Below are positions 26,189 to 42,466 of a DNA stretch of 64,000 bases, one piece after another. The stretch comes from Bacilli bacterium (GTDB taxonomy: Bacteria > Bacillota_I > Bacilli_A > RF39 > UBA660): positions 660,597-724,596 of the forward strand of contig JAFQSD010000002.1 in assembly GCA_017409785.1 (NCBI GenBank), read 5' to 3'. The first letter of the stretch is position 1. Every line of letters begins with the position of its first letter. The notes under the pieces are model-generated. The model saw only the letters and a list, made by a program, of their open reading frames with translations. It made no database searches and had not been told where the DNA came from. The position numbers were made by a program, and so were the translations under genes.

Positions 26189-26243
26189 CATTGAAAATTA
26201 ATATAAAATGTGATATATTATAATGCACTGAGGGGGAATGAAT

Positions 26244-26582
26244 ATGACAGCATTAGAGACATTAATTTATAATTCATTAGACCTAGCAACATTAGGTAGT
26301 GAACTATACTGTACAACAACATGTTTAGATGGAATGGATGATGAATCAAAGAGTACAACAATTGCTTGTTCTGTAACAACAGCTTTAAATAATATCCAAG
26401 TTCCAGACAGTGTAGTAATAGTAAGAGATGCACAAAGTTATGTTGAATCAATGTCAACAGAACAACTAATTGAGTTAGAACAACTATTAGCAGAAAAAGA
26501 ACTAACCTTTTCTGAAACTGATGCAGATAACGTTAAAGAACCTGCAAAAGTATATACTAAGACAAGTCCAAAGCAACAGTAA
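26244..26582 (+). CDS. Small protein with shared C-terminal helix motif (member 1 of 3)
   Basis: 112 aa, unrecognised. Start at ATG 26244, since GAGGGGG (26229-26235) is 8 bases upstream; an earlier ATG at 26238 is too close. N-terminal half is Leu/Thr rich (TALETLIYNSLDLATLGS). The C-terminal motif DAQSYVESMSTEQLIELEQLL recurs in the gene at 27423 (NAQAYVESLSEDRLAELAEML) and more loosely at 26648. No signal peptide. A terminator overlaps the 3' end. Function unknown. Confidence 0.65.
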   Translation: MTALETLIYNSLDLATLGSELYCTTTCLDGMDDESKSTTIACSVTTALNNIQVPDSVVIVRDAQSYVESMSTEQLIELEQLLAEKELTFSETDADNVKEPAKVYTKTSPKQQ

Positions 26583-26596
26583 TAGTTGCTTTTTTC
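26571..26596 (+). terminator. Terminator overlapping the 26244 gene end
   Basis: AAGCAAC (26571-26577), loop AGTAATA, GTTGCTT (26585-26591), then T tract. Confidence 0.8.
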
Positions 26597-26614
26597 ATTG
26601 CTTTATGGTATAAT
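26586..26614 (+). promoter_or_regulatory. Promoter for the 26648 gene
   Basis: TTGCTT (26586-26591), a 17-base spacer, TATAAT (26609-26614). The -35 lies in the 3' arm of the preceding terminator. Confidence 0.65.
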
Positions 26615-26647
26615 AAGAGCCGTTCAAAGAGAATAGGGGAAACGGTT

Positions 26648-27421
26648 ATGGAAGCAGTAGATTACAAAAAGAAAATTAAACTGTGTGAAAAACTTGGAGC
26701 CAATAAATTCCAAAAAGTTGTATTTAAGGTTGAAGAATTAAAATACAAGTTTATTAAAAAATTCATTCCTAAATACATAGAATGGTATGACAAAATATGC
26801 GATAGAAAAAGAAAAAAAGAACTAAAAAAAGCTAAAACGCCAGAAGAAAGAAAGTATATCGTAGAACATTATCGTCGTCAAAAAATGTTAATGCGAAAAG
26901 AATTTCACAGAGAGCAAAACAGAAACTATCATATGGATCCTAATAAGCCCACAGAAATATTAGAATATTTAAAATGGAATAAAGACATTCATATGAGAGG
27001 AATTATTAAAAATGCAATTGCAATACCATGCTTAGCAGTAGCAGCAGGATTTGGTCTTTGGCCAACAGTTGTAGTGCCATTCTTAGCATTAGAACTAGGG
27101 TCATTATTTATTAACTTCCAATGTGTAAATATTCAAAACTGTAATATATATCGATATAAACAACGTGAAGAAACAATGAAAAGACTTGAAGAAAGAAGAA
27201 CTAAAAAGAATGTTGAAGAATACAGCGAAGCTGGTGCAGCAATAAGTAGAAGTATGGCAAAAACAGATGATATTCCGTCACTAACAGAAGTAATCGATAG
27301 TATTCAAACAAAGGAAGAACTAGAACAATTGAGAAAACTAGTGCAAGTAACACTAGGTGCAAATAAAGCAGCATCAACAAGTCAAAATACGGATGCTAAA
27401 AGTTCAGGAGGGAAAAAGTAA
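26648..27421 (+). CDS. Membrane protein with basic N-terminal arm (member 2 of 3)
   Basis: 257 aa, unrecognised. Residues 1-110 are rich in Lys and Arg with no signal peptide. A hydrophobic pair spans about 117-158 (IKNAIAIPCLAVAAGFGLWPTVVV and FLALELGSLFINF) and could form a membrane hairpin. The C-terminal part ends with VIDSIQTKEELEQLRKLVQV, similar in pattern to the V-E-S-M/L-S...LxxLxxLL motif of its neighbours, then a Ser/Gly/Lys-rich tail. Overlapping ribosome site for the next gene (GGAGGG) is in its last codons. Confidence 0.6.
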   Translation: MEAVDYKKKIKLCEKLGANKFQKVVFKVEELKYKFIKKFIPKYIEWYDKICDRKRKKELKKAKTPEERKYIVEHYRRQKMLMRKEFHREQNRNYHMDPNKPTEILEYLKWNKDIHMRGIIKNAIAIPCLAVAAGFGLWPTVVVPFLALELGSLFINFQCVNIQNCNIYRYKQREETMKRLEERRTKKNVEEYSEAGAAISRSMAKTDDIPSLTEVIDSIQTKEELEQLRKLVQVTLGANKAASTSQNTDAKSSGGKK

Positions 27422-27422
27422 T

Positions 27423-27797
27423 ATGTTACAATCAACAACAATATTAGCAGAAACAGCAACAGTAGCAGGAGCTACAGGATTAACTGCAAAAACAGCAGTA
27501 AAATATGAAGTAGATGAAAAAGGAAACAAAACAGCAATTTTAGTTAACAAAAAAAGAGCAATAGTAGGAACAACTATAGGTTCTAGTGCAACAACAGCAA
27601 CTTATGGTTTTCAACAACAAAGCTTAAATAATACACTAAATAATGTTCATAACGCTCAAGCATACGTTGAATCATTAAGTGAAGATAGATTAGCTGAATT
27701 AGCAGAAATGCTTGATGCCAAAGGTGCAGAACTAGAATTAGTCGAACAAACAGCACTTGGAGAAATAGAAACAAAACAACCATATGTAAAAAAGTAA
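27423..27797 (+). CDS. Small protein with shared C-terminal helix motif (member 3 of 3)
   Basis: 124 aa. ATG 27423 is chosen because GGAGGG (27407-27412) lies 10 bases upstream; the frame is open further but without a site. N-terminal half is Ala/Thr rich with a glycine-containing hydrophobic stretch (IVGTTIGSSATTATYG). C-terminal motif NAQAYVESLSEDRLAELAEML is shared with the gene at 26244. Begins one base after the stop of the previous gene, so the two are coupled. Unknown function. Confidence 0.65.
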   Translation: MLQSTTILAETATVAGATGLTAKTAVKYEVDEKGNKTAILVNKKRAIVGTTIGSSATTATYGFQQQSLNNTLNNVHNAQAYVESLSEDRLAELAEMLDAKGAELELVEQTALGEIETKQPYVKK

Positions 27798-28941: not shown

Positions 28942-29676
28942 ATGAAAAAGAAACTTCCAATTATCTTACTAATATTACTATTAATAATAATTGTGTTATT
29001 TGTAAGTCAAATCCTAAAGAAAGAATACGTTATAGACTACAATAAAAACTATATACAAAATTATATAACCGAAAATTATCAAGATTATAAACTAGTGAGT
29101 GTAAAGTACGAGTATTTAGATACATTCTGGAGTTCGTATTATGATATTGAAGAAGATGATGTAAACAAAGAAATTATCTGTAATGCAACTTTACAAAATA
29201 TGCAAACAGGAATGCATATTACAATACCATTCCATCACAATAAAAACAGCGTATTTACAGATACCCAATATGGTAGAAAAAATATAAAGAATATAGTTAA
29301 AGAGTATGAAAAGTATTGGGAATCAATTGATAAAATAAAAAGCAATTATAACACAGAAATAAAAATATCGAATGCACAAATAGAAGAGACAGATGGAAGT
29401 GACATTTATGAATTGTCTATTTACATAATCGATAATGTAAATGCAAAAGATATAATAACAAAAATAAACGATTTAAAAACACCAGTCGGAATAAGAAATG
29501 TTAATTATGTTGTCACAAATGAATTAATATATGAAAAATTAGATCCTTGGTTAGAACCAAACAAGTATCTATTAGTTCCAGATAATATGAAAAGTGTTGA
29601 TAAAGAATCAAATTTCTCATTATATATAGACAACTATGAAAATGGTAAATATAGATTTACTAACTATTATGCATAA
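28942..29676 (+). CDS. Membrane-anchored protein of unknown function
   Basis: 244 aa. One N-terminal hydrophobic helix (about residues 5-25, KLPIILLILLLIIIVLFV) with a positively charged start, then a soluble, probably extracytoplasmic part of about 215 residues rich in Tyr, Asn and Asp. No cleavage site is obvious and no known domain was recognised. GGTGAT precedes the ATG and TATAAT lies at 28921-28926. First gene of the uncharacterised run before EssC; any link to secretion is inference from position. Confidence 0.65.
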   Translation: MKKKLPIILLILLLIIIVLFVSQILKKEYVIDYNKNYIQNYITENYQDYKLVSVKYEYLDTFWSSYYDIEEDDVNKEIICNATLQNMQTGMHITIPFHHNKNSVFTDTQYGRKNIKNIVKEYEKYWESIDKIKSNYNTEIKISNAQIEETDGSDIYELSIYIIDNVNAKDIITKINDLKTPVGIRNVNYVVTNELIYEKLDPWLEPNKYLLVPDNMKSVDKESNFSLYIDNYENGKYRFTNYYA

Positions 29677-29706
29677 AACTCGAATTTTTCGAGTTTTTTA
29701 TTTTTT
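29676..29706 (+). terminator. Terminator after the 28942 gene
   Basis: AAACTCGAA (29676-29684), TTT loop, TTCGAGTTT (29688-29696) then a T-rich tract. Confidence 0.85.
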
Positions 29707-29712
29707 CTAATA

Positions 29713-29741
29713 TTGAAAAAAACACTAAAACTTGTTATTAT
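29713..29741 (+). promoter_or_regulatory. Promoter of the 590-aa protein gene
   Basis: TTGAAA (29713-29718), a 17-base spacer, TATTAT (29736-29741). Transcription would start near 29748, which excludes the in-frame start at 29732 and supports ATG 29771. Confidence 0.6.
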
Positions 29742-29770
29742 ATAAAGCAAAAATTACAGGTGACATAGTG

Positions 29771-31543
29771 ATGGAAAAATTTGAAGTATTAGGTTATTTA
29801 AAACTAATGAAAGACTATTTTGCTTTGAGAAAAACACCGTCTCTAACAAGGATAAAAGACTTTTTTAGAGAGTTTTATCATGTTGATAACATGCCTGAAA
29901 ACTTCTATGAGATGTTTCTTCAAAAATTAAAATCAAAACAAGTACTATTAAGTGTTATTAATCAAGATATATATCAACTAATAAGCTATCTAAAGTATAA
30001 TTCAGAAGAAACAGAAGAGATTAAAGATTATTTAACACCACAAGATTATTTTTCAATATCAAAAAAACATATTAAAAAATTAGAACAATTACTTCAAAAT
30101 ATGCCTAAAGACGAAAATGAACTTTCGTCAATTATATCTGAAGACTTAATATGGAAATTAAGAAGAAGACCAATACAAACTAATGAAGAATATCATGAAC
30201 TTGCTTATAAACTCTACCAAGTATTTGGATTTGATAATGCAAGTGAACTAATATTTAATAAATATGGGGCACTCAACTATGAGCAACTTCATTTCTTAAT
30301 AAAGAACTTAGAACCTAAACATTATTCACCAGAAGAAAGAGAAAGAGTAAATCGATACTTATTTGGAGACAAAAAAAGTTATAACATTCCAATTAGACAA
30401 ATGTTAAACGGAAGAATATTACCATTATTTTTAAACTTTGATTATTTTTATAATAATAATCAATACTTCGTTGAAAAATTAGGTAGAAAACTACCACTAG
30501 ATAAATTACGTCTTCTCCTTGAAGAAAGATATCTAACATCAGAACCAACTACACCAGAAATAACTGCTGAATTAAGAGAAGATATGCTATCTTCTTACTA
30601 TCATAAATATACAGAAACAGACACAAAACCAGATATAGTTATAGATAAAAATATTAGTTTATATACAGAAAAATTAAGAAATAAATATGCTTCGTCCATT
30701 CCACAAATAACCATACAAACAGATGATGAAGAAATAAAACCAGAACTATTAAATTTAAGTGACCCAAGAAATTTGACTCACGGATATCGCTCAGGTAATT
30801 GCTTTAGAGTAAATGGAGATGCAGCTATACTATTTTCTAAATTTCTAGAAAGCGAGCACATGAGAATACTAAGTTTTTCAACAGAAGAATACAAAGATTA
30901 CGCAATGGTATTACTGATGAGAAATGGTAATGTTTTAATAGCTCAAGGAATAGAAACTAGTAAGTGGGTTCCACCAGAATTAAAAGGAAAAAGATTATAT
31001 GATCTAACTCGTAACACACTAAAACAAGTAATGAATTATATGAACTCATGTGGTGATGAAGTAGTAGGAACAATAATTGGCGCTACAAATGAAAATGTAA
31101 CTTCCTATAACAATAATATATTACCGTTTATAGTATCACCAAACATAGAAAATAGTAGTAACTATTACAATGGAGTATCAACTTATCAATGTTTATTAGA
31201 TTTAGCCCCATCAAAAACAATTCATGATATGAAAGCCTATATACCTGAAAAAAGATACTATGATCAAAGAGAAGCAATTTTATCTAGAAAGAATAATTAT
31301 CCAGTTCAAGATATAGAAAGAAGAATAATCTCATTAAGATATCAAAGAACACAAACACAAGAGGGATATACCTTTTATGAACAAATGCTTAATAAACATG
31401 AACAAGAAACAATTTGTAATAAAGACTGGTACATAACACTATTTACAGATGGAACAGTTGACTCATTCCTTTCTGATACAAAAGATCCACGTGCTAAAGA
31501 GGAGTATCAGACACAATTAGCAAAGGTTTATCAAAAAAAATAA
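29771..31543 (+). CDS. Large uncharacterised cytoplasmic protein
   Basis: 590 aa from ATG 29771 (AGGTGA 7 bases upstream). No signal peptide or membrane helix. The N-terminal ~300 residues are helical and charged. Between about 330 and 480 comes a denser, probably enzymatic core: LTHGYRSGNCFRVNGDA, HMRILSFS, MVLLMRNGNVLIAQGIE and GDEVVGTIIGATNENV. The invariant-looking GNCxR with nearby Gly and Asn resembles a nucleophile loop, but I recognise no family. It lies upstream of the EssC genes with its own promoter. Function unknown; not an obvious EsaA or EssB. Confidence 0.6.
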   Translation: MEKFEVLGYLKLMKDYFALRKTPSLTRIKDFFREFYHVDNMPENFYEMFLQKLKSKQVLLSVINQDIYQLISYLKYNSEETEEIKDYLTPQDYFSISKKHIKKLEQLLQNMPKDENELSSIISEDLIWKLRRRPIQTNEEYHELAYKLYQVFGFDNASELIFNKYGALNYEQLHFLIKNLEPKHYSPEERERVNRYLFGDKKSYNIPIRQMLNGRILPLFLNFDYFYNNNQYFVEKLGRKLPLDKLRLLLEERYLTSEPTTPEITAELREDMLSSYYHKYTETDTKPDIVIDKNISLYTEKLRNKYASSIPQITIQTDDEEIKPELLNLSDPRNLTHGYRSGNCFRVNGDAAILFSKFLESEHMRILSFSTEEYKDYAMVLLMRNGNVLIAQGIETSKWVPPELKGKRLYDLTRNTLKQVMNYMNSCGDEVVGTIIGATNENVTSYNNNILPFIVSPNIENSSNYYNGVSTYQCLLDLAPSKTIHDMKAYIPEKRYYDQREAILSRKNNYPVQDIERRIISLRYQRTQTQEGYTFYEQMLNKHEQETICNKDWYITLFTDGTVDSFLSDTKDPRAKEEYQTQLAKVYQKK

Positions 31544-31585
31544 AATAATATGTTATAATAAAAAACATAAAAGAGGAGGTTCATT

Positions 31586-32167
31586 ATGAAAATATTAAAA
31601 GATAATAAACTTTATATACAAAAAAACGATATGGCTTATTTAAATAGTTCTGGATTAAGTATTCCAGCATCAATATTTCTAAAAGTATTTGGCCATGGAA
31701 TTACTATTATAGATAATAGTAATAGATATGAATTTATAGAATTTACGGATCCAAAAGAAATAGAATTCTTCCAAGGTCAAGACTGGATTGTAGATTACGA
31801 TACAGTTAAAGATTTAACAGAAGAAGAAATTTTACAGTTAGGACAAGAAGTAGCGGCAGAAAAGAATCGTCGAGCAGATGAGTTTAACGCTAAACCAAAG
31901 AAATATAGACAAGAAAACTATGAAAGTGTAATTGCTGAACTTGATCTATTAGACTTTAAGATGTATTCATTAAGAGATATTATTATGTTTAAAAGAGGAG
32001 AATTAGATTTTCCTTTACCAGCAGGAGTAGAAAGACCAGCACAATCAATTATTGATGTAGAGGGAGAAGTTGTTAAAGAAGATTCTCAAGTAGAATCAAT
32101 CCCAGCGTCTTCAAATGGAAAAAAGTCATTTTTTAAATCAATCTTTAGAAGAAGAAATAATAAGTAA
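31586..32167 (+). CDS. Hypothetical protein with basic C-terminal tail
   Basis: 193 aa, ATG 8 bases after AGAGGAGG, TATAAT-like sequence about 30 bases upstream. N-terminal part is a mixed alpha/beta domain (LYIQKNDMAYLNSSGLSIPASI, FIEFTDPKEIEFFQGQDWIVDY). A helix about 80-105, then SLRDIIMFKRGELDFPLPAGV, then a low-complexity linker and a strongly basic end (FFKSIFRRRNNK). The basic tail could touch membrane or nucleic acid. Not recognised. Confidence 0.6.
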   Translation: MKILKDNKLYIQKNDMAYLNSSGLSIPASIFLKVFGHGITIIDNSNRYEFIEFTDPKEIEFFQGQDWIVDYDTVKDLTEEEILQLGQEVAAEKNRRADEFNAKPKKYRQENYESVIAELDLLDFKMYSLRDIIMFKRGELDFPLPAGVERPAQSIIDVEGEVVKEDSQVESIPASSNGKKSFFKSIFRRRNNK

Positions 32168-32196
32168 CAACTTTACACTGCCTCACAATAAAATAA

Positions 32197-32226
32197 TTGT
32201 ATACTCTAGCAAATAAATGTTATACT
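32197..32226 (+). promoter_or_regulatory. Promoter of the LURP-like gene
   Basis: TTGTAT (32197-32202), an 18-base spacer, TATACT (32221-32226). Confidence 0.6.
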
Positions 32227-32245
32227 GACTATAGTAGGTGATTAT

Positions 32246-32704
32246 ATGAAATTAAAAATATCAGTAACAAAAGAAGGCGGTTTAGAACTATACATCACAA
32301 GAAATGAAACTAATGACCGTATATATGTCATGCGTGAAAGATACCTATTTCTAAAAAAAGAATTACAACTATATGATGCTCATAAAAAATATATTGCTGA
32401 AATAGTAACACCATTATTTGGAGCAAAAAAATTAACGTTCAAAGAAAATGATAGAGTAATTGATGAACTTAATCTTATCTCCAAAAAGATTAAACGTGAG
32501 TATCAGTTGGAACAAAACAAATGGCGTATTGAGGTAGATGTAACATTCACAGAATACAATATATGCGATGAAAATAATGAAATAATAGCAGAAGTAAAAT
32601 TCAATTTGCCAGAAAGAACTTGGTTAATAGATGTTAAGAAAACAAAAGATGTAACGTTATTAATGCTTATGATATTATCAGTAGTTTCAATAAGTCAAAG
32701 TTAA
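32246..32704 (+). CDS. Tubby/LURP-one-like domain protein
   Basis: 152 aa. Alternating short strands (IYVMRERYLFLKKELQLYDAHKKYIAEIV, WRIEVDVTFTEYNICDENNEIIAEV) followed by a C-terminal hydrophobic helix (about 132-150, VTLLMLMILSVVSIS) fit the twelve-strand barrel around a central helix of the LURP-one/tubby family. In the known fold the last helix fills the barrel rather than crossing a membrane. Family call is by pattern only. It has its own promoter and a terminator separates it from essC. Confidence 0.45.
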   Translation: MKLKISVTKEGGLELYITRNETNDRIYVMRERYLFLKKELQLYDAHKKYIAEIVTPLFGAKKLTFKENDRVIDELNLISKKIKREYQLEQNKWRIEVDVTFTEYNICDENNEIIAEVKFNLPERTWLIDVKKTKDVTLLMLMILSVVSISQS

Positions 32705-32726
32705 AGTACTAGTAATAGTACTTTTT
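32703..32726 (+). terminator. Terminator after the LURP-like gene
   Basis: AAAGTACTA, GTAA loop, TAGTACTTT (32716-32724) then T's. Confidence 0.75.
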
Positions 32727-32750
32727 ATTATGAGAAAAGAAAAATAAATA

Positions 32751-32779
32751 TTGTAAAAAAATAGAAAAAAAGATATAAT
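32751..32779 (+). promoter_or_regulatory. Promoter of the essC operon
   Basis: TTGTAA (32751-32756), a 17-base spacer, TATAAT (32774-32779), 38 bases before the GTG start of essC. Confidence 0.75.
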
Positions 32780-32817
32780 TACATATAGAATAGGAATAAT
32801 AACTGGGGTGATCTTAA

Positions 32818-35800
32818 GTGATCGTAAGATTGATTAAAAAAAGCAAAATTTATAATTTTACATTACCAACAAAAGTTGCTGGAAATTATTGGATCACAGA
32901 CAACGATTATCTCGGTAATGTAAGAAACCTAATTAACGTTGAAGAAGATAACGGTCAATGGAAAATAAAAAGTGACTTCGAAACTAAAATCATGAATGGA
33001 GATCACGAAATTGATTCGGCTATTCTTCAAGAATATAGCTTATATTTCTTAAAAATTAATACAGATAATGAATATGTTATTTTATATTGCTCACCAAGTA
33101 CAGAAAAAACAACACTAAAATTACGTTTAAAAGCACAAGGTGAAATAATAATAGGTAATGATGCTAATGCACACATTAGTTATGCCTATCCTTTAGTATC
33201 GAAACAACAAGCTAGATTAATATACAATGGTGGTACATGGGTTGTACAAGACCTAAATAGTAAATATGGTACCTATGTTAACAATGTAGCTGTAACAACT
33301 CAAACACTTGAATATGGAGATATAATTTTTATTATGGGATTAAAAATTATTGTAATGGACCAATCCCTAATTATTAATACAATAGGAAATTATATTAACT
33401 TTAATAGAGGTCTATTCGACATTGAAAGGCCATTAGTTCAAACACAAACACAAGAAGACAATCCTGATGAAGAAAGCATTGAATTCTTTAAAGAAGAAGA
33501 TTATTTCTATCGTGCTCCTCGTTTCAAAACAAGAATTGAAGAGGTAAACATCGGAATTGACCCACCTCCAGGAAAAGAAGCAGAGGATAAAACGCCACTT
33601 ATTTATACATTAGGGCCAATGATGACAATGGCAATGATGTCACTATCAACAGGAATAAGTGCATTTATGAGCGTAATCAATGGTTCAGTTGATATCAAAG
33701 ATGTTGCTTCAACATTATTAACATCTGGAGCCATGATGTGTACTATGATTGTTTGGCCAATCATGTCACAAAACTATCAAAAACGTCAACGCAAAAAACG
33801 TGAAAAAGAACGTTTAAAGAAATATAATGAATACGTTGAACAAAAACGTGAAAAGATTCAAGCAGAAATGAAGATTCAACGTCAAATTTTAATTGACAAC
33901 TATCTACCACTATCTGCTACAAAAGATATTATTTATGGTAAAAAGAGAAATTTATGGGAAAGAGAGATCGATCAAGAAGACTTCCTAGACTTAAGATTAG
34001 GTATCGGAACAACACCATTATTTGGTAACGTAAGTTTCCCAGAAGAAAGATTCTCTCTAGAAACAGATGAATTATTAAAAGAAGTATACAAATTAGGTGC
34101 AGAATCAAGAATGCTTGAAAACGTACCAGTATCATTATCATTTGTTCAAAAAAATATTTCTGCAATTATTGGAACATCAGCTAATAAACGTCAATTCATT
34201 GATGGATTAGTTCTTCAAATGTTAGCATATCATAGTTATGAAGACTTAAAGTTAGTTGTATTTACTAATGAAAAGAATGCTCCATATTGGGACTATTTAA
34301 AAGTATCTCCACACATTTGGAGTAATGATAAGAGTACAAGATATTTTGCTACAAACTTAGATGAAGCAAAAGAAATATCTTTAACATTAGAAAAAGCTTT
34401 CCAAGCAAGAAAATTCAAAGATAATAATGGTAAGATGGAACAAAGTGCAGTTGATTATAAGCACTATCAACCATATTATGTAATATTTACTGATGACTAT
34501 AAAGGAATCAGAGATATAGAAATTATTAAAGACGTTGCAGAATCAAACTTAAACTATGGATTTAGTTTAATCGTAGTAAGTCCAAGACTTATCAACATCC
34601 CTAATGAATGTAAAACTTTCATTAGTATCGGAGATAAAAAGTCAGGAGTATTCGAAAACGAACTTGTTTCAAATAAGCAAAAAGAATTCTTAGCAGATTT
34701 CGATCCAACATTAAATATGTATGAATGTTGTAAGATTCTAGCTAATATTCCAATTGATATAGCAAAAGAAAATCAATCATTACCAAATGCCCTTACATTC
34801 CTAGAAATGTATAACGTAGGTATGGTAGAACAATTAAATATCTTAAATAGATGGAAACAAAATGATCCTACTAAGTCATTACAAGCCCCAGTTGGTGTAG
34901 ATAAGACTAGAGAACTATTTAAGTTGGATTTACATGAAAAATTCCACGGACCACATGGTCTTATCGCTGGTATGACAGGTTCAGGTAAATCAGAATTTAT
35001 CATTAGTTATATTATGTCCATGGCATTAAACTACCACCCATACGAAGTATCATTCGTACTTATCGACTATAAAGGTGGAGGTTTAACAGGAGCCTTTGAA
35101 AACAGAGAAACAGGAATGAAACTTCCTCACTTAGCAGGAACAATTACCAACTTAGACACAAACGAAATGAACCGTTCCTTAGCATCAATTCAATCAGAAC
35201 TTCGTAAACGTCAAAGAATGTTTAATGAAGCAAGAGATAAATTAAATGAAAGTACAATCGATATTTACAAATATCAAGGTCTATATCGTAAAGGTTTAGT
35301 TGATAAACCAATTTCACATTTATTTATCATCAGTGATGAGTTCGCCGAATTAAAGGCGCAAAGACCAGAATTCATGGAACAATTAATTTCAACTGCCCGT
35401 ATCGGACGTTCCCTAGGAGTTCACTTAATCCTAGCAACACAAAAACCAGCCGGAGTAGTTAATGAACAAATTTGGTCAAACTCAAAATTCCGTGTCTGCT
35501 TAAAAGTTCAAGATAAAGCAGATAGTAATGATATGATTAGAGTTCCAGATGCTGCTAACTTAAAAGAAGCAGGACGCTTCTACCTACAAGTAGGTTATAA
35601 TGAGTTATTCGCAATGGGACAAGCTGCTTGGGCAGGGGCCAAATACTACCCAACAGAAAAACGTAAAAAGAAAGTAGACCAATCTATCAATATCATTGAT
35701 AATGTTGGTAACGTAATTAAAAATCTTGATACAAAACAAGATGACGTAGTTGTAGAAGCTAAAGGTGAAGAAATCACAAGTATTATTCAATATATTGTCG

Positions 35801-37401
35801 ATGAAGCAAAAGCAGAAAATATTGAAATTGAACAACTATGGTTAGATAAAATTCCAGATATAATCTTTGTTGAAGAATTAAAGAAAAAATATAACTATGA
35901 AATTAAGAAAAATGATATTAATCCAGTAATTGGTGAATACGATGATCCAGATAACCAACAACAACACTTATTAACACTTCCATTATCAAGAGATGGAAAT
36001 GCTATTATCTTTGGTTCTGGAGGTAGTGGTAAAGAATTAATGCTTACAAGTATTATTTATTCAACAATCACTACTCATGATTCATCAGAAGTTAACTTCT
36101 ATATCTTAGATTTTGGAGCAGAAACAATGACAATGTTCAAGAAAGCTCCACATGTTGGTGAGGTATTACTTGCCGCAGATAATGAAAAGATTGATAACTT
36201 ATTCAAGATGATCAATAAGATTATAGAAGACCGTAAACGTTTATTCGTAGACTACAATGGTTCATTTGATTTCTATATTAACCATGGTGGAAAACAACTT
36301 CCATTAATAATTGTAGTAATCAATAACGTTGAAGCATTTATGGAAACATATGGCGATTACGAAGAAATCTTAGGACAAATTACACGTGACTGTTTAAAAT
36401 ATGGAGTAGTCTTCATGTTTAGTACAAATGGTCCAAATACAGTAAGATATCGTATTAGACAAAACTTCCGTCAAAATGTTGTTTTACAATTCAACGATCC
36501 ATCAGATTACGCAAGTGTTCTTCCTGGTGTTAGAAAGAAAGAACCTTCTAAAGTATTTGGTCGTGGTATGATTGCCATAGATGCAATCTATGAATTCCAA
36601 ACAGCATACCCATATAAAGAAGAAAAAATGTCAGACTATATTAGAATAATCTGTAGTAAATTAAGTGAAATTTGTACAACAAAAGCTAAGAAAGTACCAA
36701 TCTTACCAGAAACAATTGGTCAAGAAGAAGTTGCAGAAGTGTTAGGAAACTTAAGAACACTTCCAGTTGGTATCGAAAAAGAATCACTAGAAATTGCTAC
36801 AATCAACCTAAAAGATTCTTACATTTACAATATCACTGGAGAAGATGTTACATCTCTACCAGAATTCTTACATGGCTTTGCCAGAAATGTTGTAAGAGTA
36901 CCAAATGCTAAATGTATTATCGTTGATGCTGCAAGTGCTCTATCTGGAGTAAAATTTGCTGAAGAATCTATCACATATGGTAGTGGAGCATGCAAAGAAG
37001 TTGTTCAACAAATCGTTGATATCTGTAATGCTAAGAAGGAAAATAACACTCCAGAAGAAGTTGTATGTATGTTAGTTGGATTAAATACATTATTCCAAAA
37101 AATGTCTGCTATTGAAAAAGGTAACTTAACAATGGCAATTCAAAATTCAAGTGGTTTAGGAACAATTCGTTTCGTAATAGTTGAAACAATTGATCATATT
37201 AAATCAATCAGTTACGAAGCTTGGTACAAAGCAAGTATCGACTTATCTGCAGGTATCTGGATTGGAAATGGAATTGCCAACCAATTCACACTTAAAGTTA
37301 CAACTAATGCTAGAACACTTCGTGCAGAAATCGATCCAAAATTCGGTTATGTTATTAAGAAAGGTAAAGCTACTTTAATTAAATTTATTTCTAATGAATA
37401 G
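32818..37401 (+). CDS. essC: Type VII secretion ATPase EssC
   Basis: 1527 aa FtsK/SpoIIIE-family motor that drives export in T7SSb. GTG start after GGGGTGAT. Order: an N-terminal EssC-type beta domain (1-90), then an FHA domain (about 95-180, IIIGNDANAHI, VSKQQARL, VQDLNSKYGTYVN). Two membrane helices follow at about 260-320, then a highly basic coil. ATPase 1 has Walker A GMTGSGKSE at about 717 and Walker B LFIISDEFAEL at about 836. ATPase 2 has GSGGSGKEL at about 1065, and a degenerate third ATPase lacks a P-loop. Length and domain order match staphylococcal and Bacillus EssC/YukBA. It begins an operon with EsaB-like and two small genes. Confidence 0.95.
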   Translation: MIVRLIKKSKIYNFTLPTKVAGNYWITDNDYLGNVRNLINVEEDNGQWKIKSDFETKIMNGDHEIDSAILQEYSLYFLKINTDNEYVILYCSPSTEKTTLKLRLKAQGEIIIGNDANAHISYAYPLVSKQQARLIYNGGTWVVQDLNSKYGTYVNNVAVTTQTLEYGDIIFIMGLKIIVMDQSLIINTIGNYINFNRGLFDIERPLVQTQTQEDNPDEESIEFFKEEDYFYRAPRFKTRIEEVNIGIDPPPGKEAEDKTPLIYTLGPMMTMAMMSLSTGISAFMSVINGSVDIKDVASTLLTSGAMMCTMIVWPIMSQNYQKRQRKKREKERLKKYNEYVEQKREKIQAEMKIQRQILIDNYLPLSATKDIIYGKKRNLWEREIDQEDFLDLRLGIGTTPLFGNVSFPEERFSLETDELLKEVYKLGAESRMLENVPVSLSFVQKNISAIIGTSANKRQFIDGLVLQMLAYHSYEDLKLVVFTNEKNAPYWDYLKVSPHIWSNDKSTRYFATNLDEAKEISLTLEKAFQARKFKDNNGKMEQSAVDYKHYQPYYVIFTDDYKGIRDIEIIKDVAESNLNYGFSLIVVSPRLINIPNECKTFISIGDKKSGVFENELVSNKQKEFLADFDPTLNMYECCKILANIPIDIAKENQSLPNALTFLEMYNVGMVEQLNILNRWKQNDPTKSLQAPVGVDKTRELFKLDLHEKFHGPHGLIAGMTGSGKSEFIISYIMSMALNYHPYEVSFVLIDYKGGGLTGAFENRETGMKLPHLAGTITNLDTNEMNRSLASIQSELRKRQRMFNEARDKLNESTIDIYKYQGLYRKGLVDKPISHLFIISDEFAELKAQRPEFMEQLISTARIGRSLGVHLILATQKPAGVVNEQIWSNSKFRVCLKVQDKADSNDMIRVPDAANLKEAGRFYLQVGYNELFAMGQAAWAGAKYYPTEKRKKKVDQSINIIDNVGNVIKNLDTKQDDVVVEAKGEEITSIIQYIVDEAKAENIEIEQLWLDKIPDIIFVEELKKKYNYEIKKNDINPVIGEYDDPDNQQQHLLTLPLSRDGNAIIFGSGGSGKELMLTSIIYSTITTHDSSEVNFYILDFGAETMTMFKKAPHVGEVLLAADNEKIDNLFKMINKIIEDRKRLFVDYNGSFDFYINHGGKQLPLIIVVINNVEAFMETYGDYEEILGQITRDCLKYGVVFMFSTNGPNTVRYRIRQNFRQNVVLQFNDPSDYASVLPGVRKKEPSKVFGRGMIAIDAIYEFQTAYPYKEEKMSDYIRIICSKLSEICTTKAKKVPILPETIGQEEVAEVLGNLRTLPVGIEKESLEIATINLKDSYIYNITGEDVTSLPEFLHGFARNVVRVPNAKCIIVDAASALSGVKFAEESITYGSGACKEVVQQIVDICNAKKENNTPEEVVCMLVGLNTLFQKMSAIEKGNLTMAIQNSSGLGTIRFVIVETIDHIKSISYEAWYKASIDLSAGIWIGNGIANQFTLKVTTNARTLRAEIDPKFGYVIKKGKATLIKFISNE

Positions 37402-37412
37402 GAGAAAATGAT

Positions 37413-37670
37413 ATGAATAAGAATAAAATATTAATAGAATTAGAAATTCCTCTAATTGAAAAGTCATATGATTTATATATACCTATTAATAAAAGAATAG
37501 GAACAATCAAAAAATTAATTGAACAAGCTTTAGTAGAAATAACCGAAGGTGCTTATGAAATGAAGTTAGATACTAATTTCTATAGTAAAGAAACTGGTCA
37601 AATATACGATGTAAATAAAAATGTTAGAGAAACAGACTTAAAAAATGGTTCAAGAATAATCTTAATATAG
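37413..37670 (+). CDS. esaB: EsaB/YukD-like ubiquitin-fold protein
   Basis: 85 aa, 11 bases after essC. Beta-grasp pattern: ILIELEIPLIEKSYDLYIP, a helix TIKKLIEQALVEI, and the diagnostic ending NVRETDLKNGSRIILI, matching YukD/EsaB. In known T7SSb this small cytoplasmic protein is required for or regulates secretion. Supports the T7SS call for the locus. Confidence 0.88.
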   Translation: MNKNKILIELEIPLIEKSYDLYIPINKRIGTIKKLIEQALVEITEGAYEMKLDTNFYSKETGQIYDVNKNVRETDLKNGSRIILI

Positions 37671-37679
37671 GAGGTAACT

Positions 37680-37931
37680 ATGTCAGATTATAATCAATTT
37701 GTAATGGCAGTTAATAAAATATTTGAAATTACTGCTAAAATCAAAGCTGGTTGGAAAGATCAAGATAATGTCAATATCGCTGATAGTATCGAAGATTCTA
37801 AAGCAACAGTAGTTGAAGCTGCAAAGTTATTCAATACTCAAGCACCAGCAAAACCACAAGCAACTCCTGCACCAGAAGCCGATTTAACACTAGAAGATGA
37901 AGATGAAGATACGGGGGCTGTTGAAGAATGA
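37680..37931 (+). CDS. Small helical protein in the T7SS operon
   Basis: 83 aa, 9 bases after esaB (AGGAGGT). Residues 1-50 form amphipathic helices with GWKDQDN near residue 26; the last third is an Ala/Pro then Glu/Asp-rich tail, probably disordered. There is no central WxG, so it is not a WXG100 protein by sequence, but size, helical nature and place match a secreted or chaperone-like partner. Its TGA overlaps the next ATG (ATGA). Confidence 0.6.
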   Translation: MSDYNQFVMAVNKIFEITAKIKAGWKDQDNVNIADSIEDSKATVVEAAKLFNTQAPAKPQATPAPEADLTLEDEDEDTGAVEE

Positions 37932-38146
37932 TAGGGAAATTTACTTATGAAGAAATTCTTCAGTTTGCTAAAGAATTAGCAGACAATGCAGATATCGTTG
38001 ATAAACTTGCTAAAAAACAAGATGCAGGAATGCTACAAACATTTATCTCTAACGTAGACTGGTATTCTACATTTCTAAAATCAACAGTAGAAATATATAA
38101 AGATGCCGATACCGTATTAAAACCATTAAAAGACAAAATAAAATAA
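37928..38146 (+). CDS. Second small helical protein in the T7SS operon
   Basis: 72 aa, start overlapping the previous stop. Predicted all-helical (FTYEEILQFAKELADNADIVDKLAKK, FISNVDWYSTFLKSTVEIY). The only Trp is in VDWYS, without a WxG. Tight coupling to the 37680 gene suggests a two-protein complex. Ends just before a bidirectional terminator, closing the essC operon. Not recognised. Confidence 0.6.
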   Translation: MIGKFTYEEILQFAKELADNADIVDKLAKKQDAGMLQTFISNVDWYSTFLKSTVEIYKDADTVLKPLKDKIK

Positions 38147-38148
38147 AC

Positions 38149-38177
38149 AAAAGAACTTTCACTACGAAAGTTCTTTT
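38149..38177. terminator. Bidirectional terminator, T7SS operon / SpoIID-like gene
   Basis: Twelve-bp perfect stem AAAAGAACTTTC / GAAAGTTCTTTT with loop ACTAC. The minus-strand stop codon lies in the loop. Confidence 0.92.
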
Positions 38178-39232
38178 ATATATTTATTAATTTTAACTTT
38201 AGGAAAATAGTATTTAATTATATTAGCAAAATCACAGCCATTAAGGGCCATTTCATTTGCCCCATATAAACTAAGACCATATCCATTTCCATAGCCCTTA
38301 CTAATAATTTTTAATTCTTCATTATTAACAATAATATTTATATTCATAGATTTTAATCCAAGTATTCTCTTAATTTCTTCACCAGTATAAACATTCTTAT
38401 CAATACTTAATTTCTTGACGTAATCACGACTATCAACATCCATAATAGTAAAAGTTGAGTCCTTAGAAATATTAAATCCTAATAAATTACTAAGAATATC
38501 ATATTTCCAACTTTTAACTTCTACATAATAAGGAGAACCTAAATCCCAAAGACTTTTAACAGAACTTAAGTAAGGGTAGTCTCTATGGTAAAAAGTCTTA
38601 CCAGTATTTGAATAATGTATAAAAGGCAAAATATAATTATCATTGTAAGTTATAAAGAGGCAATCAGTCTCTTTTATTGCTTTACTAAGTTGTTCTAAGA
38701 TCTCATCGTAATCAACAGTCCATACTAATTTAAAGTACGAAATAGGCTTATATAAAGCAAAGTCATTAAAAGCATCTACAAATTTATCAGTACTCATTTT
38801 ATAAAATGCATAAGTTCTATATAAAATACAAAGTGCTTTAATAACCTCAATATCAATTCCAACTATAGAATTAGTTGCTAAAACACCAAGTAAATATTCT
38901 TTTAAAGGTAATTCAACCATAGAATTATCTTGTAATTTAATAGATACTAAAAAATGTTCATTAGAATAATATAAACTATCTTTTAATATTTCAATAGGAT
39001 TACTTTCTAATGAAATATCTAATGTCTTTACAACAATACCATCAATTACTAAGTAAACTTTCTTACCAGTATAATTAATATTATTATTTCTAATAAAATT
39101 TCTAGCTCTTCTTGCTAAATCATCATCTTTAGAGTTTAAAACTAACTCTCTTGAAAATTCATAATTAATAGATAGGTATAAATATAAAACATCCTCAGTA
39201 CCATTATTTTTAATTTCATATTTATAAAACAT
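38162..39232 (-). CDS. SpoIID/LytB-domain protein with altered catalytic site
   Basis: 356 aa. SpoIID is a lytic transglycosylase acting in engulfment. The SpoIID core is visible: LPLKEYLLGVLATNS, then IKALCILYRTYAFYKMS, SNTGKTFYHRDYPYLSSVKSLWD, and GYGNGYGLSLYGANEMALNG with YYFPKVKI at the end. The catalytic Glu (family pattern ASEMP) is replaced, the alignment giving Asn in ATNSI; several His/Cys of the core are also missing. There is no N-terminal membrane helix. ATG 39232 is used because AGGTG is 6 bases upstream. Likely a non-enzymatic or cytoplasmic relative. Confidence 0.75.
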   Translation of the reverse strand: MFYKYEIKNNGTEDVLYLYLSINYEFSRELVLNSKDDDLARRARNFIRNNNINYTGKKVYLVIDGIVVKTLDISLESNPIEILKDSLYYSNEHFLVSIKLQDNSMVELPLKEYLLGVLATNSIVGIDIEVIKALCILYRTYAFYKMSTDKFVDAFNDFALYKPISYFKLVWTVDYDEILEQLSKAIKETDCLFITYNDNYILPFIHYSNTGKTFYHRDYPYLSSVKSLWDLGSPYYVEVKSWKYDILSNLLGFNISKDSTFTIMDVDSRDYVKKLSIDKNVYTGEEIKRILGLKSMNINIIVNNEELKIISKGYGNGYGLSLYGANEMALNGCDFANIIKYYFPKVKINKYIKELS

Positions 39233-39279
39233 CAGCATCACCTAAAAATAGTATGCGTAAGAGAATAAAAAACAATACA

Positions 39280-39315
39280 AAAAAAGAACTAAAATTCAAA
39301 ATATTTTAGTTCTTT
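39280..39315 (-). terminator. Terminator of the phospholipase C-like gene
   Basis: Thirteen-bp stem AAAGAACTAAAAT / ATTTTAGTTCTTT (39283-39295, 39303-39315); on the minus strand it is followed by a T run. It overlaps the end of the gene. Confidence 0.8.
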
Positions 39316-40260
39316 ATTTAAATTACAATCACGACCAGTAACATAACTAATATTAGTAAATATTTTTTCTAATTCAATATCTTTATTATTAATATAATCA
39401 AAACTAGCACATATTAATACTTTAGCAGTTTTAATAGATTTAACATATAAATCTACAAAAGACTCAGTACTTGTCATATTATAATTAGTTGGATTTCTCC
39501 ACAACGTATGATTAGAATTTAAATAATTATGTTTATCTTCTAACGGAACATGATAACTTATAGCCTCAAATCTAAAAACTCTTTTAGTAGTAAAAGTATC
39601 AACGATCTTATAAAAGAATTTCTTTATCCCATAAGGATCTCTTCTAAATAAGAATAATGAATTTTTCATTTGTTTAAGCGATTTATAGTATATATTTCCC
39701 ATATTTTCTAAACCAAATGTATCATAAAAACTATTATCAATAACATTCTTTAAATTACTTGAAAATTCTCTTGTGTTAAAACAAAATTCATCCATTCTAA
39801 ATTTATAAGGATTTACTTTTTCTCTTCTTTTAACTATATCATTATCAATGAATGTTTCCATAAACTCATGTACATGATTATATTTATAAGTATTTTTTCT
39901 TCTTTTATCAAATATACCAGTTTTATAAATAATATATGGATGAATATTTGAATCTAATACATAATGGCAAATCATACCTGCTAAATAAGAACAAACATCC
40001 ATATCATTAGTTAAATCATTATCTTTAATATAGTTAATTAAATTAACAAAGTAAGCTTGTGTCTCAGTTCTATGAAACTCACCACAGAAATTTCTAATTT
40101 TCTTTCCTGGTAAAATTGAAAATAAATTATAAAACATTAAGGCATCCATACTTTGACCAAACATCTTAATTCTACTGCAATCTATTATATTCTTAATATT
40201 ACTTGGTAAGATATCAAAAACATCTTTTGCAAAATAAGCATGAGTAATCGTTGCGGGCAT
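39289..40260 (-). CDS. Zinc-dependent phospholipase C-like protein
   Basis: 323 aa from an ATG after GAGGGAGGAAG (a longer in-frame start has no site). PATITHAYFAKDVF at the N terminus, MFGQSMDALMFY, CGEFHRTETQAYF, SYLAGMICHYVLDSNIHPYI and VHEFMETFID carry the scattered His/Asp residues typical of the zinc-dependent phospholipase C/S1-P1 nuclease superfamily. No signal peptide, so probably cytoplasmic; such uncharacterised members are common in Firmicutes. Substrate unknown. Confidence 0.75.
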   Translation of the reverse strand: MPATITHAYFAKDVFDILPSNIKNIIDCSRIKMFGQSMDALMFYNLFSILPGKKIRNFCGEFHRTETQAYFVNLINYIKDNDLTNDMDVCSYLAGMICHYVLDSNIHPYIIYKTGIFDKRRKNTYKYNHVHEFMETFIDNDIVKRREKVNPYKFRMDEFCFNTREFSSNLKNVIDNSFYDTFGLENMGNIYYKSLKQMKNSLFLFRRDPYGIKKFFYKIVDTFTTKRVFRFEAISYHVPLEDKHNYLNSNHTLWRNPTNYNMTSTESFVDLYVKSIKTAKVLICASFDYINNKDIELEKIFTNISYVTGRDCNLNKELKYFEF

Positions 40261-40397
40261 TTTACTTCCTCCCTCGTAACATAATATTAAAATACATACC
40301 TTCAAAAAATAAAGGTAATTAAATTATACCATTAAATTCACTAAATTTTCATACTTTTCTATAAATAATATGATATAATTTATACTAGGTGAGAATA

Positions 40398-41348
40398 ATG
40401 ATAGGGAAACAATTTAAAAACTTAGATGAACAAATTGAAATACTTAAACATAGAGGTATGATTATTAATGATGAAGACTATGCAAAAATAGTATTATTAC
40501 GTGAAAATTACTTCTTTTTAAATGGGTATCGCCACTTATTTTTGAAAAGAAGAGAAGATAATGACTATCTAGAAGGAACAACATTTGAAGAATTATATAG
40601 CTTATTCTTATTTGATCGTTCTATTAGAAATGTTTTATTTAAATATTTACTTGTAATTGAAAATAACTTAAAGTCTATTACATCATATCAATTATCTAAG
40701 AAGTATGGATATCGTGAACGTGATTATTTAAAACCAAAAAACTTTACACAACATCCAGATAAGCAACGTCAGTTAAATGACTTATTAAAGAAAATGAAAA
40801 GACAAATTCGTGTAAATGGTTCACAACATACTGCTACATTACACTATGTTTCAAACTATGGATATATTCCACTATGGATCTTAGTTAAAGTATTATCATT
40901 TGGTATTGTAAGTGAAATGTACTCTGTCTTAAAAGCAGAAGATCAAAGAGATATTGCTAGAACATACGGTATAGAACCAGATGACTTTCAAACATACTTA
41001 CCAATTTTAGCTAATTATCGTAATTTATGTGCTCATGAAGATATTCTTTTTGAAAATAAGACTCAAAAAGCTATAGATGACACAATTTATCATAAAATTT
41101 TAGATATTCCTAAATCAGAAGGAGAATATATTTATGGTAAGCATGATCTATTTGCCCTAGTAATAATTATGAAACAAATGCTACAAACCGAGGAATTCAA
41201 AAATATGACTATGGAATTAGAAAATATTATTCAAACATTGAATTACAACTTACATACAATAAAAATAGAAAAAGTATTCAATCGTATGGGATTCCCAATG
41301 AACTGGAAAGAGTTATCAAAAATTGAAAGGAGTTCGGATACAGAGTGA
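40398..41348 (+). CDS. Abi_2-family (AbiD/AbiF) HEPN protein
   Basis: 316 aa from ATG 40398 (AGGTGAG 5 bases upstream). Helical throughout; the HEPN RNase-type motif RNLCAHED (R-x4-H) sits at about residues 211-218, with the family opening FKNLDEQIEILKHRGMIINDEDYAKIVLLREN in two parts, YRHLFLKRRED after it. This family includes abortive-infection RNases of Lactococcus and shares the fold with Cas13 relatives. The stop overlaps the GTG of htrA (GTGA), so the two genes are translationally coupled. Confidence 0.85.
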   Translation: MIGKQFKNLDEQIEILKHRGMIINDEDYAKIVLLRENYFFLNGYRHLFLKRREDNDYLEGTTFEELYSLFLFDRSIRNVLFKYLLVIENNLKSITSYQLSKKYGYRERDYLKPKNFTQHPDKQRQLNDLLKKMKRQIRVNGSQHTATLHYVSNYGYIPLWILVKVLSFGIVSEMYSVLKAEDQRDIARTYGIEPDDFQTYLPILANYRNLCAHEDILFENKTQKAIDDTIYHKILDIPKSEGEYIYGKHDLFALVIIMKQMLQTEEFKNMTMELENIIQTLNYNLHTIKIEKVFNRMGFPMNWKELSKIERSSDTE

Positions 41349-42466
41349 AGAAAAAGCATGAAACCTTAAAAATGATGTTTATCGTTACTTTTTCCTTCGT
41401 AATAGGAGGAGTAGTAATGTTTGCCTTACTAAAATGGACACCAATTATTAGTGAAGTTTTAGGAACATCCGGTGGAGGAACAATTGTAACTAAAAATGAA
41501 ACACAAGTTTATGAGAAAGGTTCTTTAGCTGCCTCAGTAGAGAAAATATATGATGCTACTGCACTAGTAAGAACTTACAAAAAAGAACAAGTTGCTTCAA
41601 CTGGAACTGCATTTGTCTACAAAGCAGATGATAAATATGGATATTTATTAACAAACAATCATGTCGTTGCTGATGGAGATAAAATTTCTGTTGTAATGTC
41701 AAATGATGAAGAAGTAGAAGGTACAGTTTTAGGTGGAGATGAATATTTAGATTTAGCAGTAATTCGTATTGCTAGAGAAAAAGTATCATTAATTGCTAAT
41801 ATTGGTAGTAGTGAAAATATGAAATTAGGAGATACTGTTTTCACAGTAGGCTCTCCAATGGGATATGACTATCGTGGAAGTGTTACTTCAGGTATTCTTT
41901 CAGGAAAAGATAGAATGGTTTCAGTAAGCGTATCAAATTCATTAGGAAATGATTGGGTAATGCGTGTACTACAATTAGATGCTTCAATTAACCCAGGTAA
42001 TAGTGGTGGACCACTTCTAAATGTAAATGGAGAAGTAATTGGAATATGCTCTCTAAAACTAGTTGATGATGAAATAGAAGGAATGGGATTTGCGATTCCA
42101 ATTGAATATGCTATGAGTCATGTTGAAACACTAGAAGCAGGTAAAACAATCGAATGGCCATTATTAGGAATAGAAATGGCAAATGTAACAGATACATCAT
42201 TACTATATAGAAATAGAATTATCTTAGATGAAGATATAAAACAAGGTGTTGTTGTTATAAGTGCTGTAGACGGTTCTGGTGCTAAAGCAGCAGGATTAGA
42301 AAAAGGCGATGTAATTATAAAATTAGCTGGTAAAGAAGTTAAGGACTATGCTTATTTAAGATATGAATTGTATCAACATCAAGCAGGAGATACCGTTGAA
42401 ATTGTCTATATAAGAGACGGTAAAGAAAAAACAACAAAAGTTAAACTAGGTAAAAGTTCTGAATAA
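41345..42466 (+). CDS. htrA: HtrA/DegP-type serine protease
   Basis: 373 aa, GTG start with AAAGGAG 10 bases upstream, overlapping the Abi_2 stop. One N-terminal membrane helix (about 10-32), then a trypsin-like domain with catalytic His in LLTNNHVVADG, Asp in YLDLAVIRIA and Ser in NPGNSGGPLL, then one PDZ domain (about 285-370, VVVISAVDGSGAKAAGLEKGDVII). Membrane-anchored quality-control protease facing outward. The link to an Abi_2 protein is unusual. Confidence 0.95.
   Translation: MKKKHETLKMMFIVTFSFVIGGVVMFALLKWTPIISEVLGTSGGGTIVTKNETQVYEKGSLAASVEKIYDATALVRTYKKEQVASTGTAFVYKADDKYGYLLTNNHVVADGDKISVVMSNDEEVEGTVLGGDEYLDLAVIRIAREKVSLIANIGSSENMKLGDTVFTVGSPMGYDYRGSVTSGILSGKDRMVSVSVSNSLGNDWVMRVLQLDASINPGNSGGPLLNVNGEVIGICSLKLVDDEIEGMGFAIPIEYAMSHVETLEAGKTIEWPLLGIEMANVTDTSLLYRNRIILDEDIKQGVVVISAVDGSGAKAAGLEKGDVIIKLAGKEVKDYAYLRYELYQHQAGDTVEIVYIRDGKEKTTKVKLGKSSE

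What the first reader, a model, noticed from the sequence alone, without database searches (positions are those of the whole stretch)
28942..38146. Stripped-down T7SSb locus: EssC and EsaB without EsaA, EssA or EssB
EssC is full length with FHA and three ATPase domains, and EsaB is clear, yet none of the neighbours looks like EssB (pseudokinase with membrane helix), EssA or the many-helix EsaA. The genes upstream (membrane-anchored 244-aa, 590-aa, 193-aa, LURP-like) may be replacements. A membrane pore with so few parts would be a different architecture.
Basis: partly seen in the sequence, partly recalled or inferred. Interest (0 to 1): 0.68.

Follow-up and report, generated by a model that had tools for sequence, protein, structure and literature searches.

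The report
Four-gene core-only type VII secretion locus
A family of uncultivated gut bacteria appears to run its type VII protein-export machine with only a motor protein, a small ubiquitin-like partner and two shrunken helper proteins, without the three membrane parts that the textbook Bacillota machine needs.

Summary
In detail: a full-length EssC with an FHA domain (32818-37401) and an EsaB-type gene (37413-37670) are present, and no EssB, EsaA or EssA was detected in the 1.5-Mb genome. Of 146 genomes of the same family, 67 carry EssC above cut-off and none carries EssB; the one EsaA hit examined is a YhgE/Pip protein. A sister family has the canonical EsxA-EssA-EsaB-EssB-EssC-EsaA set, so the searches can detect it.

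The proposed replacements fail. The 244/603/193/152-aa genes are found at this site only within the window's own genus, are set off by a terminator-like hairpin, and the 603-aa family lives elsewhere unlinked to EssC.

The real unit is a four-gene cassette: essC-esaB-smA-smB. smA and smB (83 and 72 aa) look like miniaturised WXG100 proteins, present in 32 of 32 orthologous loci, under purifying selection, each matching only the WXG100 in the same position of related loci.

T7SS variants without EsaA/EssA/EssB are already known (T7SSc-j, Garrett 2024), but each has further components. Here nothing beyond EssC, EsaB and WXG100-type proteins is broadly conserved. I call it a new, core-only variant of a known kind. 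Export itself is unproven.

The parts
32818..37401 (+). essC (TsxC-type): FtsK/SpoIIIE-like membrane ATPase, 1527 aa, degenerate FHA domain, D1 ATPase motifs intact
   Evidence: TIGR03928 1022 bits; FHA PF00498; D1 Walker A/B conserved 71/71, FHA phosphothreonine-contact positions N114 and Y150 instead of R and N; dN/dS 0.04-0.08
37413..37670 (+). esaB/tsxB: 85-aa ubiquitin-like small protein (assignment by family and position)
   Evidence: Family next to EssC in 52 of 60 loci; 97.6% profile-profile match to EsaB of T7SSe-like loci; no direct Pfam hit
37680..37931 (+). smA: 83-aa mini WXG100 protein (first of the pair), acidic linker and short conserved C-terminal tail in relatives
   Evidence: 32/32 orthologous loci; matches only the first-position WXG100 (88.8% v 0.4%; 92.9% to the T7SSe-like first WXG100); dN/dS 0.12-0.19
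37928..38146 (+). smB: 72-aa mini WXG100 protein (second of the pair), start overlaps smA stop (ATGA)
   Evidence: 32/32 loci; matches only the second-position WXG100 (93.0% v 0.6%); helical hairpin pLDDT 94, seven best PDB matches are the WXG100 protein EsxB, E 0.65 or worse; dN/dS 0.07-0.18
32751..32779 (+). promoter-like site TTGTAA-17-TATAAT just upstream of essC
   Evidence: 10 of 12 consensus positions; such matches are common by chance in this AT-rich region
32703..32724 (+). terminator-like hairpin AAAGTACTA-GTAA-TAGTACTTT followed by T-rich tail, after the LURP-like gene
   Evidence: read from the sequence; few G-C pairs, not called by the scanner
38149..38177 (.). two-way terminator-like hairpin closing the operon
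   Evidence: called on both strands

Best explanation
A complete but minimal type VII secretion locus: one operon of essC, esaB and two miniaturised WXG100-type genes, inherited vertically at a fixed chromosomal site. Shown: gene content, conservation, purifying selection, absence of detectable EssB/EsaA/EssA in genome and family. Inferred: EssC assembles in the membrane as a hexamer as EccC does, its own transmembrane helices form the conduit, EsaB docks on the ATPase, and the smA-smB pair, probably a small helical bundle, is the substrate and activator that binds the ATPase. The degenerate FHA domain and the absence of a linked kinase suggest it is not switched by phosphothreonine binding. 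The same genome carries a second EssC locus with ordinary WXG100-type genes, which looks like the variable, cargo-carrying copy.
For: EssC identity; cassette in 32/32 orthologous loci; fixed-site clade support 1.0; dN/dS 0.04-0.19 for three genes and at most 0.10 for esaB; smA and smB match only the WXG100 in the same position of related loci and of T7SSe-like loci for smA; smB found by profile in 9 of 146 genomes at E below 1e-19, in each next to the EssC; no EssB/EsaA/EssA with working controls in the canonical locus of a sister family; only EsaB, WXG100-type and one further small family recur around EssC in the 60 loci; second EssC locus.
Against: No experiment shows secretion. Missing parts could be too divergent for profile searches or lie unlinked and unrecognised; EssA is short and its profile weak even in the canonical control (E 4e-4). 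smA/smB similarity to WXG100 is at 89-95% profile probability, smA models poorly (pLDDT 69), the PDB matches of smB have E of 0.65 or more. EsaB does not match the canonical EsaB of the sister family.
Confidence: 0.72

Rival explanations
1. The system has further membrane components encoded elsewhere in the genome that replace EssA, EssB and EsaA but are unrelated or too divergent to be recognised.
For: In the characterised T7SSb these three proteins are essential (stated in PMC11217815), and the other known variants have extra membrane components. Unlinked genes were not profiled across genomes.
Against: No membrane-protein family recurs near EssC in 60 loci, although T7SS parts normally cluster; EssB and EsaA profiles are clean negatives in the own genome.
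Confidence: 0.2
2. A decaying relict: the machine lost its membrane parts and shrank its WXG100 partners, and no longer secretes.
For: smA and smB have lost much of the hinge and helices; WXG tryptophan absent in several smA sequences.
Against: Strong purifying selection on all four genes, complete open frames in 32 of 32 loci, intact D1 ATPase motifs.
Confidence: 0.05
3. EssC at this site has been repurposed for something other than protein export, for example membrane or envelope organisation, with smA/smB as regulators.
For: Fixed site without cargo genes, next to conserved envelope-related genes: SpoIID-like and, in relatives, an amidase-like and an M23-type peptidase-like gene (inferred from the sequences).
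Against: The ATPase is of ordinary T7SS type and relatives with the same core carry WXG100-type and large multi-domain candidates beside it.
Confidence: 0.08
4. One reading: the upstream 244/603/193/152-aa genes are substitute machine parts.
For: They lie next to essC in the same direction; the first has one transmembrane helix.
Against: Genus-only at this site, separable from essC in L099 and L100, 603-aa family unlinked to EssC elsewhere, hairpins between them and essC.
Confidence: 0.02

Closest known systems
T7SSe (Bacillota; Garrett, Higginson and Palmer 2024, PMC11217815)
   Same: EssC-type ATPase, EsaB-type protein and a pair of WXG100 proteins; in a T7SSe-like locus of the same class (L173, L175) the order is the same: essC-esaB-WXG1-WXG2, and EsaB and both small proteins match those best.
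   Different: No kinase, phosphatase, DUF6382-FHA protein, Ig-repeat envelope protein or small membrane proteins at the locus; FHA phosphothreonine residues lost; WXG100 pair reduced to 83 and 72 aa.
T7SSb (S. aureus, B. subtilis)
   Same: FHA-containing EssC passing the T7SSb profile; the family's EssCs split with the canonical EssC of a sister family from the T7SSe-like ones at 0.997.
   Different: No EsaA, EssA or EssB; two mini WXG100 genes after esaB instead of one EsxA. The control EssC is short and on a long branch, so this placement is not firm.
T7SSg (Acetivibrio, Paenibacillus; same paper)
   Same: Described there as relatively simple: ATPase, EsaB-type protein, two WXG100 proteins, no EssA/EssB/EsaA.
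   Different: T7SSg has a beta-propeller protein, lies by Tad pilus genes, and its ATPase lacks FHA; sequences not compared here.

Membership tests
Type VII secretion system (broad) | EccC/EssC-type membrane ATPase | tested here: met
   TIGR03928 1022 bits over cut-off 778; D1 motifs intact
Type VII secretion system (broad) | WXG100-family partner encoded with the ATPase | tested here: met
   smA/smB match positional WXG100 at 88.8% and 93.0%, but no Pfam WXG100 hit in the window proteins: homology is remote
Type VII secretion system (broad) | EsaB/YukD-type ubiquitin-like protein | tested here: met
   97.6% to EsaB of T7SSe-like loci; fold not solved or modelled
Type VII secretion system (broad) | ATPase-dependent export of the WXG100 proteins | not testable with these tools
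   needs an experiment
T7SSb | EssB (pseudokinase with membrane helix) | tested here: not met
   own genome 0; family 0/146 above cut-off; control locus found
T7SSb | EsaA | tested here: not met
   own genome 0; family 11 sub-threshold hits, the one examined is YhgE/Pip
T7SSb | EssA | tested here: not met
   own genome 0; family only weak hits, mostly inside longer frames; profile is weak even in the control
T7SSe | paired WXG100 genes plus EsaB beside the ATPase | tested here: met
T7SSe | linked Ser/Thr kinase and PPM phosphatase | tested here: not met
   none among neighbours; one 593-aa kinase elsewhere at C3:304257, nature not examined
T7SSe | DUF6382-FHA protein (TseJ) | tested here: inconclusive
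   none at the locus; PF19909 silent in the own genome but also in all controls
T7SSe | Ig-repeat envelope protein (TseI) and small membrane proteins | tested here: not met
   absent from the orthologous loci; genome-wide search not done

The most novel reading that the evidence does not exclude
EssC, EsaB and a miniaturised Esx pair form a self-sufficient translocon: the ATPase supplies both motor and membrane conduit with no accessory membrane protein, as a vertically inherited housekeeping copy alongside variable, cargo-carrying copies in the same family.
Probability: 0.4. Interest if true: 0.78.

Novelty: new variant of a known kind. Interest (0 to 1): 0.55.

Why it matters
Which parts of the type VII machine form the membrane channel is still debated in Bacillota. 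A lineage that keeps only the ATPase, the ubiquitin-like protein and two very small WXG100 proteins gives a natural test of what is dispensable, and a four-gene operon of about 5.4 kb is small enough to move into a laboratory host. It also extends the list of T7SS variants, built from RefSeq, into a family known from metagenomes.

Tried and rejected
Upstream genes as substitutes: rejected. EsaA-like hits in the family: the one examined is YhgE/Pip; partial EssB hits in six genomes are 17-27 bits, below cut-off. SpoIID-like, Abi_2 and HtrA-like neighbours: conserved in order but run convergently from, or lie beyond, the operon terminator; left out as machine parts. PDB sequence searches with EsaB and smA profiles gave only chance matches. 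Exact WXG100 C-terminal pattern HxxxD/ExxhxxxH (PMC3935865) does not fit smB cleanly by eye: not used as evidence. The tree position of the family relative to T7SSb and T7SSe is not settled: EssC leans to T7SSb, EsaB and the small pair to T7SSe. The phylum-level EssC tally scored only two candidates per genome and is a lower bound; I did not use it as a count.

Full report
What is there. The window lies in a 1.5-Mb, four-contig assembly, 93.8% complete. EssC (32818-37401, 1527 aa) passes the T7SSb EssC profile at 1022 bits and has an FHA domain. It is followed after 11 bases by an 85-aa gene, after 9 bases by an 83-aa gene (smA) and, with a 4-base ATGA overlap, by a 72-aa gene (smB). A two-way terminator-like hairpin follows (38149-38177). 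Upstream, a weak terminator-like hairpin (read from the sequence) and a promoter-like site separate essC from the 152-aa gene. I read this as one operon of four genes; the promoter and upstream hairpin are only suggestive.

The missing parts. EssB was not found in the own genome with two profiles, nor EsaA, nor EssA. In 146 genomes of the same family, 67 have EssC above cut-off and none has EssB or EsaA above cut-off. Eleven genomes have sub-threshold EsaA hits; the one I examined (L128) is a YhgE/Pip protein next to a TetR-like gene. EssA hits are weak, mostly inside longer frames. As positive control, genome G391 of another family in the same class shows, in order, a WXG100 protein, an EssA-like gene, an EsaB-size gene, EssB, EssC and an EsaA-like gene. 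So the method detects a canonical set when it is there.

Neighbours. Clustering of genes around EssC in 60 loci of the family finds EsaB in 52 and WXG100-type proteins in 46. Beyond these only a small family of about 100 aa and generic ABC ATPases recur in more than ten loci. At the window's own chromosomal site, 32 orthologous loci (window, six from the genome collection, 25 from named records titled Bacilli, Bacillales, Tenericutes or Firmicutes MAGs) all keep essC, smA and smB; esaB lies directly after essC in every one drawn. The upstream 603-, 193- and 152-aa genes appear only in the two nearest relatives, where other genes lie between them and essC; the 244-aa gene appears in none. The 603-aa family has 43-47% identical relatives in G117, G053 and G138, not adjacent to EssC, and G053 has no EssC above cut-off. 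These genes are therefore not machine parts.

The two small genes. smA matches the first WXG100 after esaB in related loci at 88.8% and the second at 0.4%; smB matches the second at 93.0% and the first at 0.6%. Among other families, those scoring above 77% in the same test look like WXG100-type proteins themselves and the rest stay at or below 22.5%. smA also matches the first WXG100 of T7SSe-like loci at 92.9%. smB is modelled as a helical hairpin at pLDDT 94, and its seven best PDB matches are EsxB, a WXG100 protein, at probability 0.93-0.98 but E of 0.65 or more, so this is supportive only. smA is modelled poorly (pLDDT 69). A profile of smB finds 9 of 146 genomes at E below 1e-19, each next to EssC; its weak further hits include WXG100-size genes beside EssC in G016 and G061. 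dN/dS is 0.04-0.08 for essC, up to 0.10 for esaB, 0.12-0.19 for smA and 0.07-0.18 for smB. smA sequences in relatives end in a short conserved tail, often MEELG or LEALG, after a variable linker; a C-terminal signal is a reasonable guess.

EssC itself. D1 Walker A and B are conserved in all 71 family sequences; D2 keeps Walker A but has NN where the acidic pair would be. The FHA residues that contact phosphothreonine (R and N in canonical FHA, general knowledge, and in three T7SSe-like loci) are N and Y in the fixed-site clade. All family EssCs group together (0.944), and the fixed-site clade has support 1.0. EssC leans to the canonical EssC of G391 (0.997), while EsaB and the small pair resemble T7SSe-like loci. 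The control EssC is short and long-branched, so the origin is left open.

How it most likely works. Inferred from EccC and EssC biology: EssC oligomerises in the membrane, its own helices line the path, EsaB sits on the ATPase, and the smA-smB pair is recognised by the ATPase, activates it and is exported. The same genome has a second EssC at C3:486481 with an EsaB gene, a lipoprotein-like gene and an oppositely oriented set of WXG100-type genes. This suggests a fixed, cargo-free copy and a variable copy. None of this has been shown to secrete.

What is known. Garrett and colleagues described T7SSc-T7SSj, which lack EssA, EssB and EsaA, and noted that B. anthracis secretes a WXG100 protein without them (PMC11217815). 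So the absence of the three proteins is not in itself new. Each of those systems has other components. The system here keeps none that I could find, and a full-text search for type VII secretion with RF39 found no description (that this family is RF39 is my guess, not tested). I file it as a new variant of a known kind.

Noticed in passing
L039 1-20000 and L040 1-600 (G000:C3:474000-494600): Second EssC locus in the same genome: EssC, EsaB, a 563-aa lipoprotein-like gene, then an oppositely oriented run of WXG100-type and partner-like genes.
   Followed up: partly
window 26238-27797: Between truA and the ribosomal-protein pair: a 257-aa protein with one membrane helix flanked by two related small genes (114 and 146 aa); the 257-aa family recurs there in 14 loci. 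Function unknown.
   Followed up: no
window 38162-42466: Conserved order after the operon: SpoIID-like (convergent), zinc-dependent phospholipase C-like, Abi_2-family protein and HtrA-like protease, kept in most orthologous loci.
   Followed up: partly
window 29732-31543: 603-aa protein of unknown function with 43-47% identical relatives in three genomes away from EssC.
   Followed up: partly
L099 and L100, between the 152-aa gene and essC: In many orthologous loci a small two-helix membrane gene and an M23-like peptidase gene (holin/lysin-like pair, my reading) lie upstream of essC; missing from the window.
   Followed up: no
L175 634-12774: A full T7SSe-like locus in the same class: DUF6382-FHA protein, phosphatase-like gene, kinase, Ig-repeat protein, EssC, EsaB-type and two WXG100 genes.
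   Followed up: partly
L119 and L121: Two EssC genes in tandem next to one EsaB and a run of oppositely oriented genes of about 100 aa.
   Followed up: no
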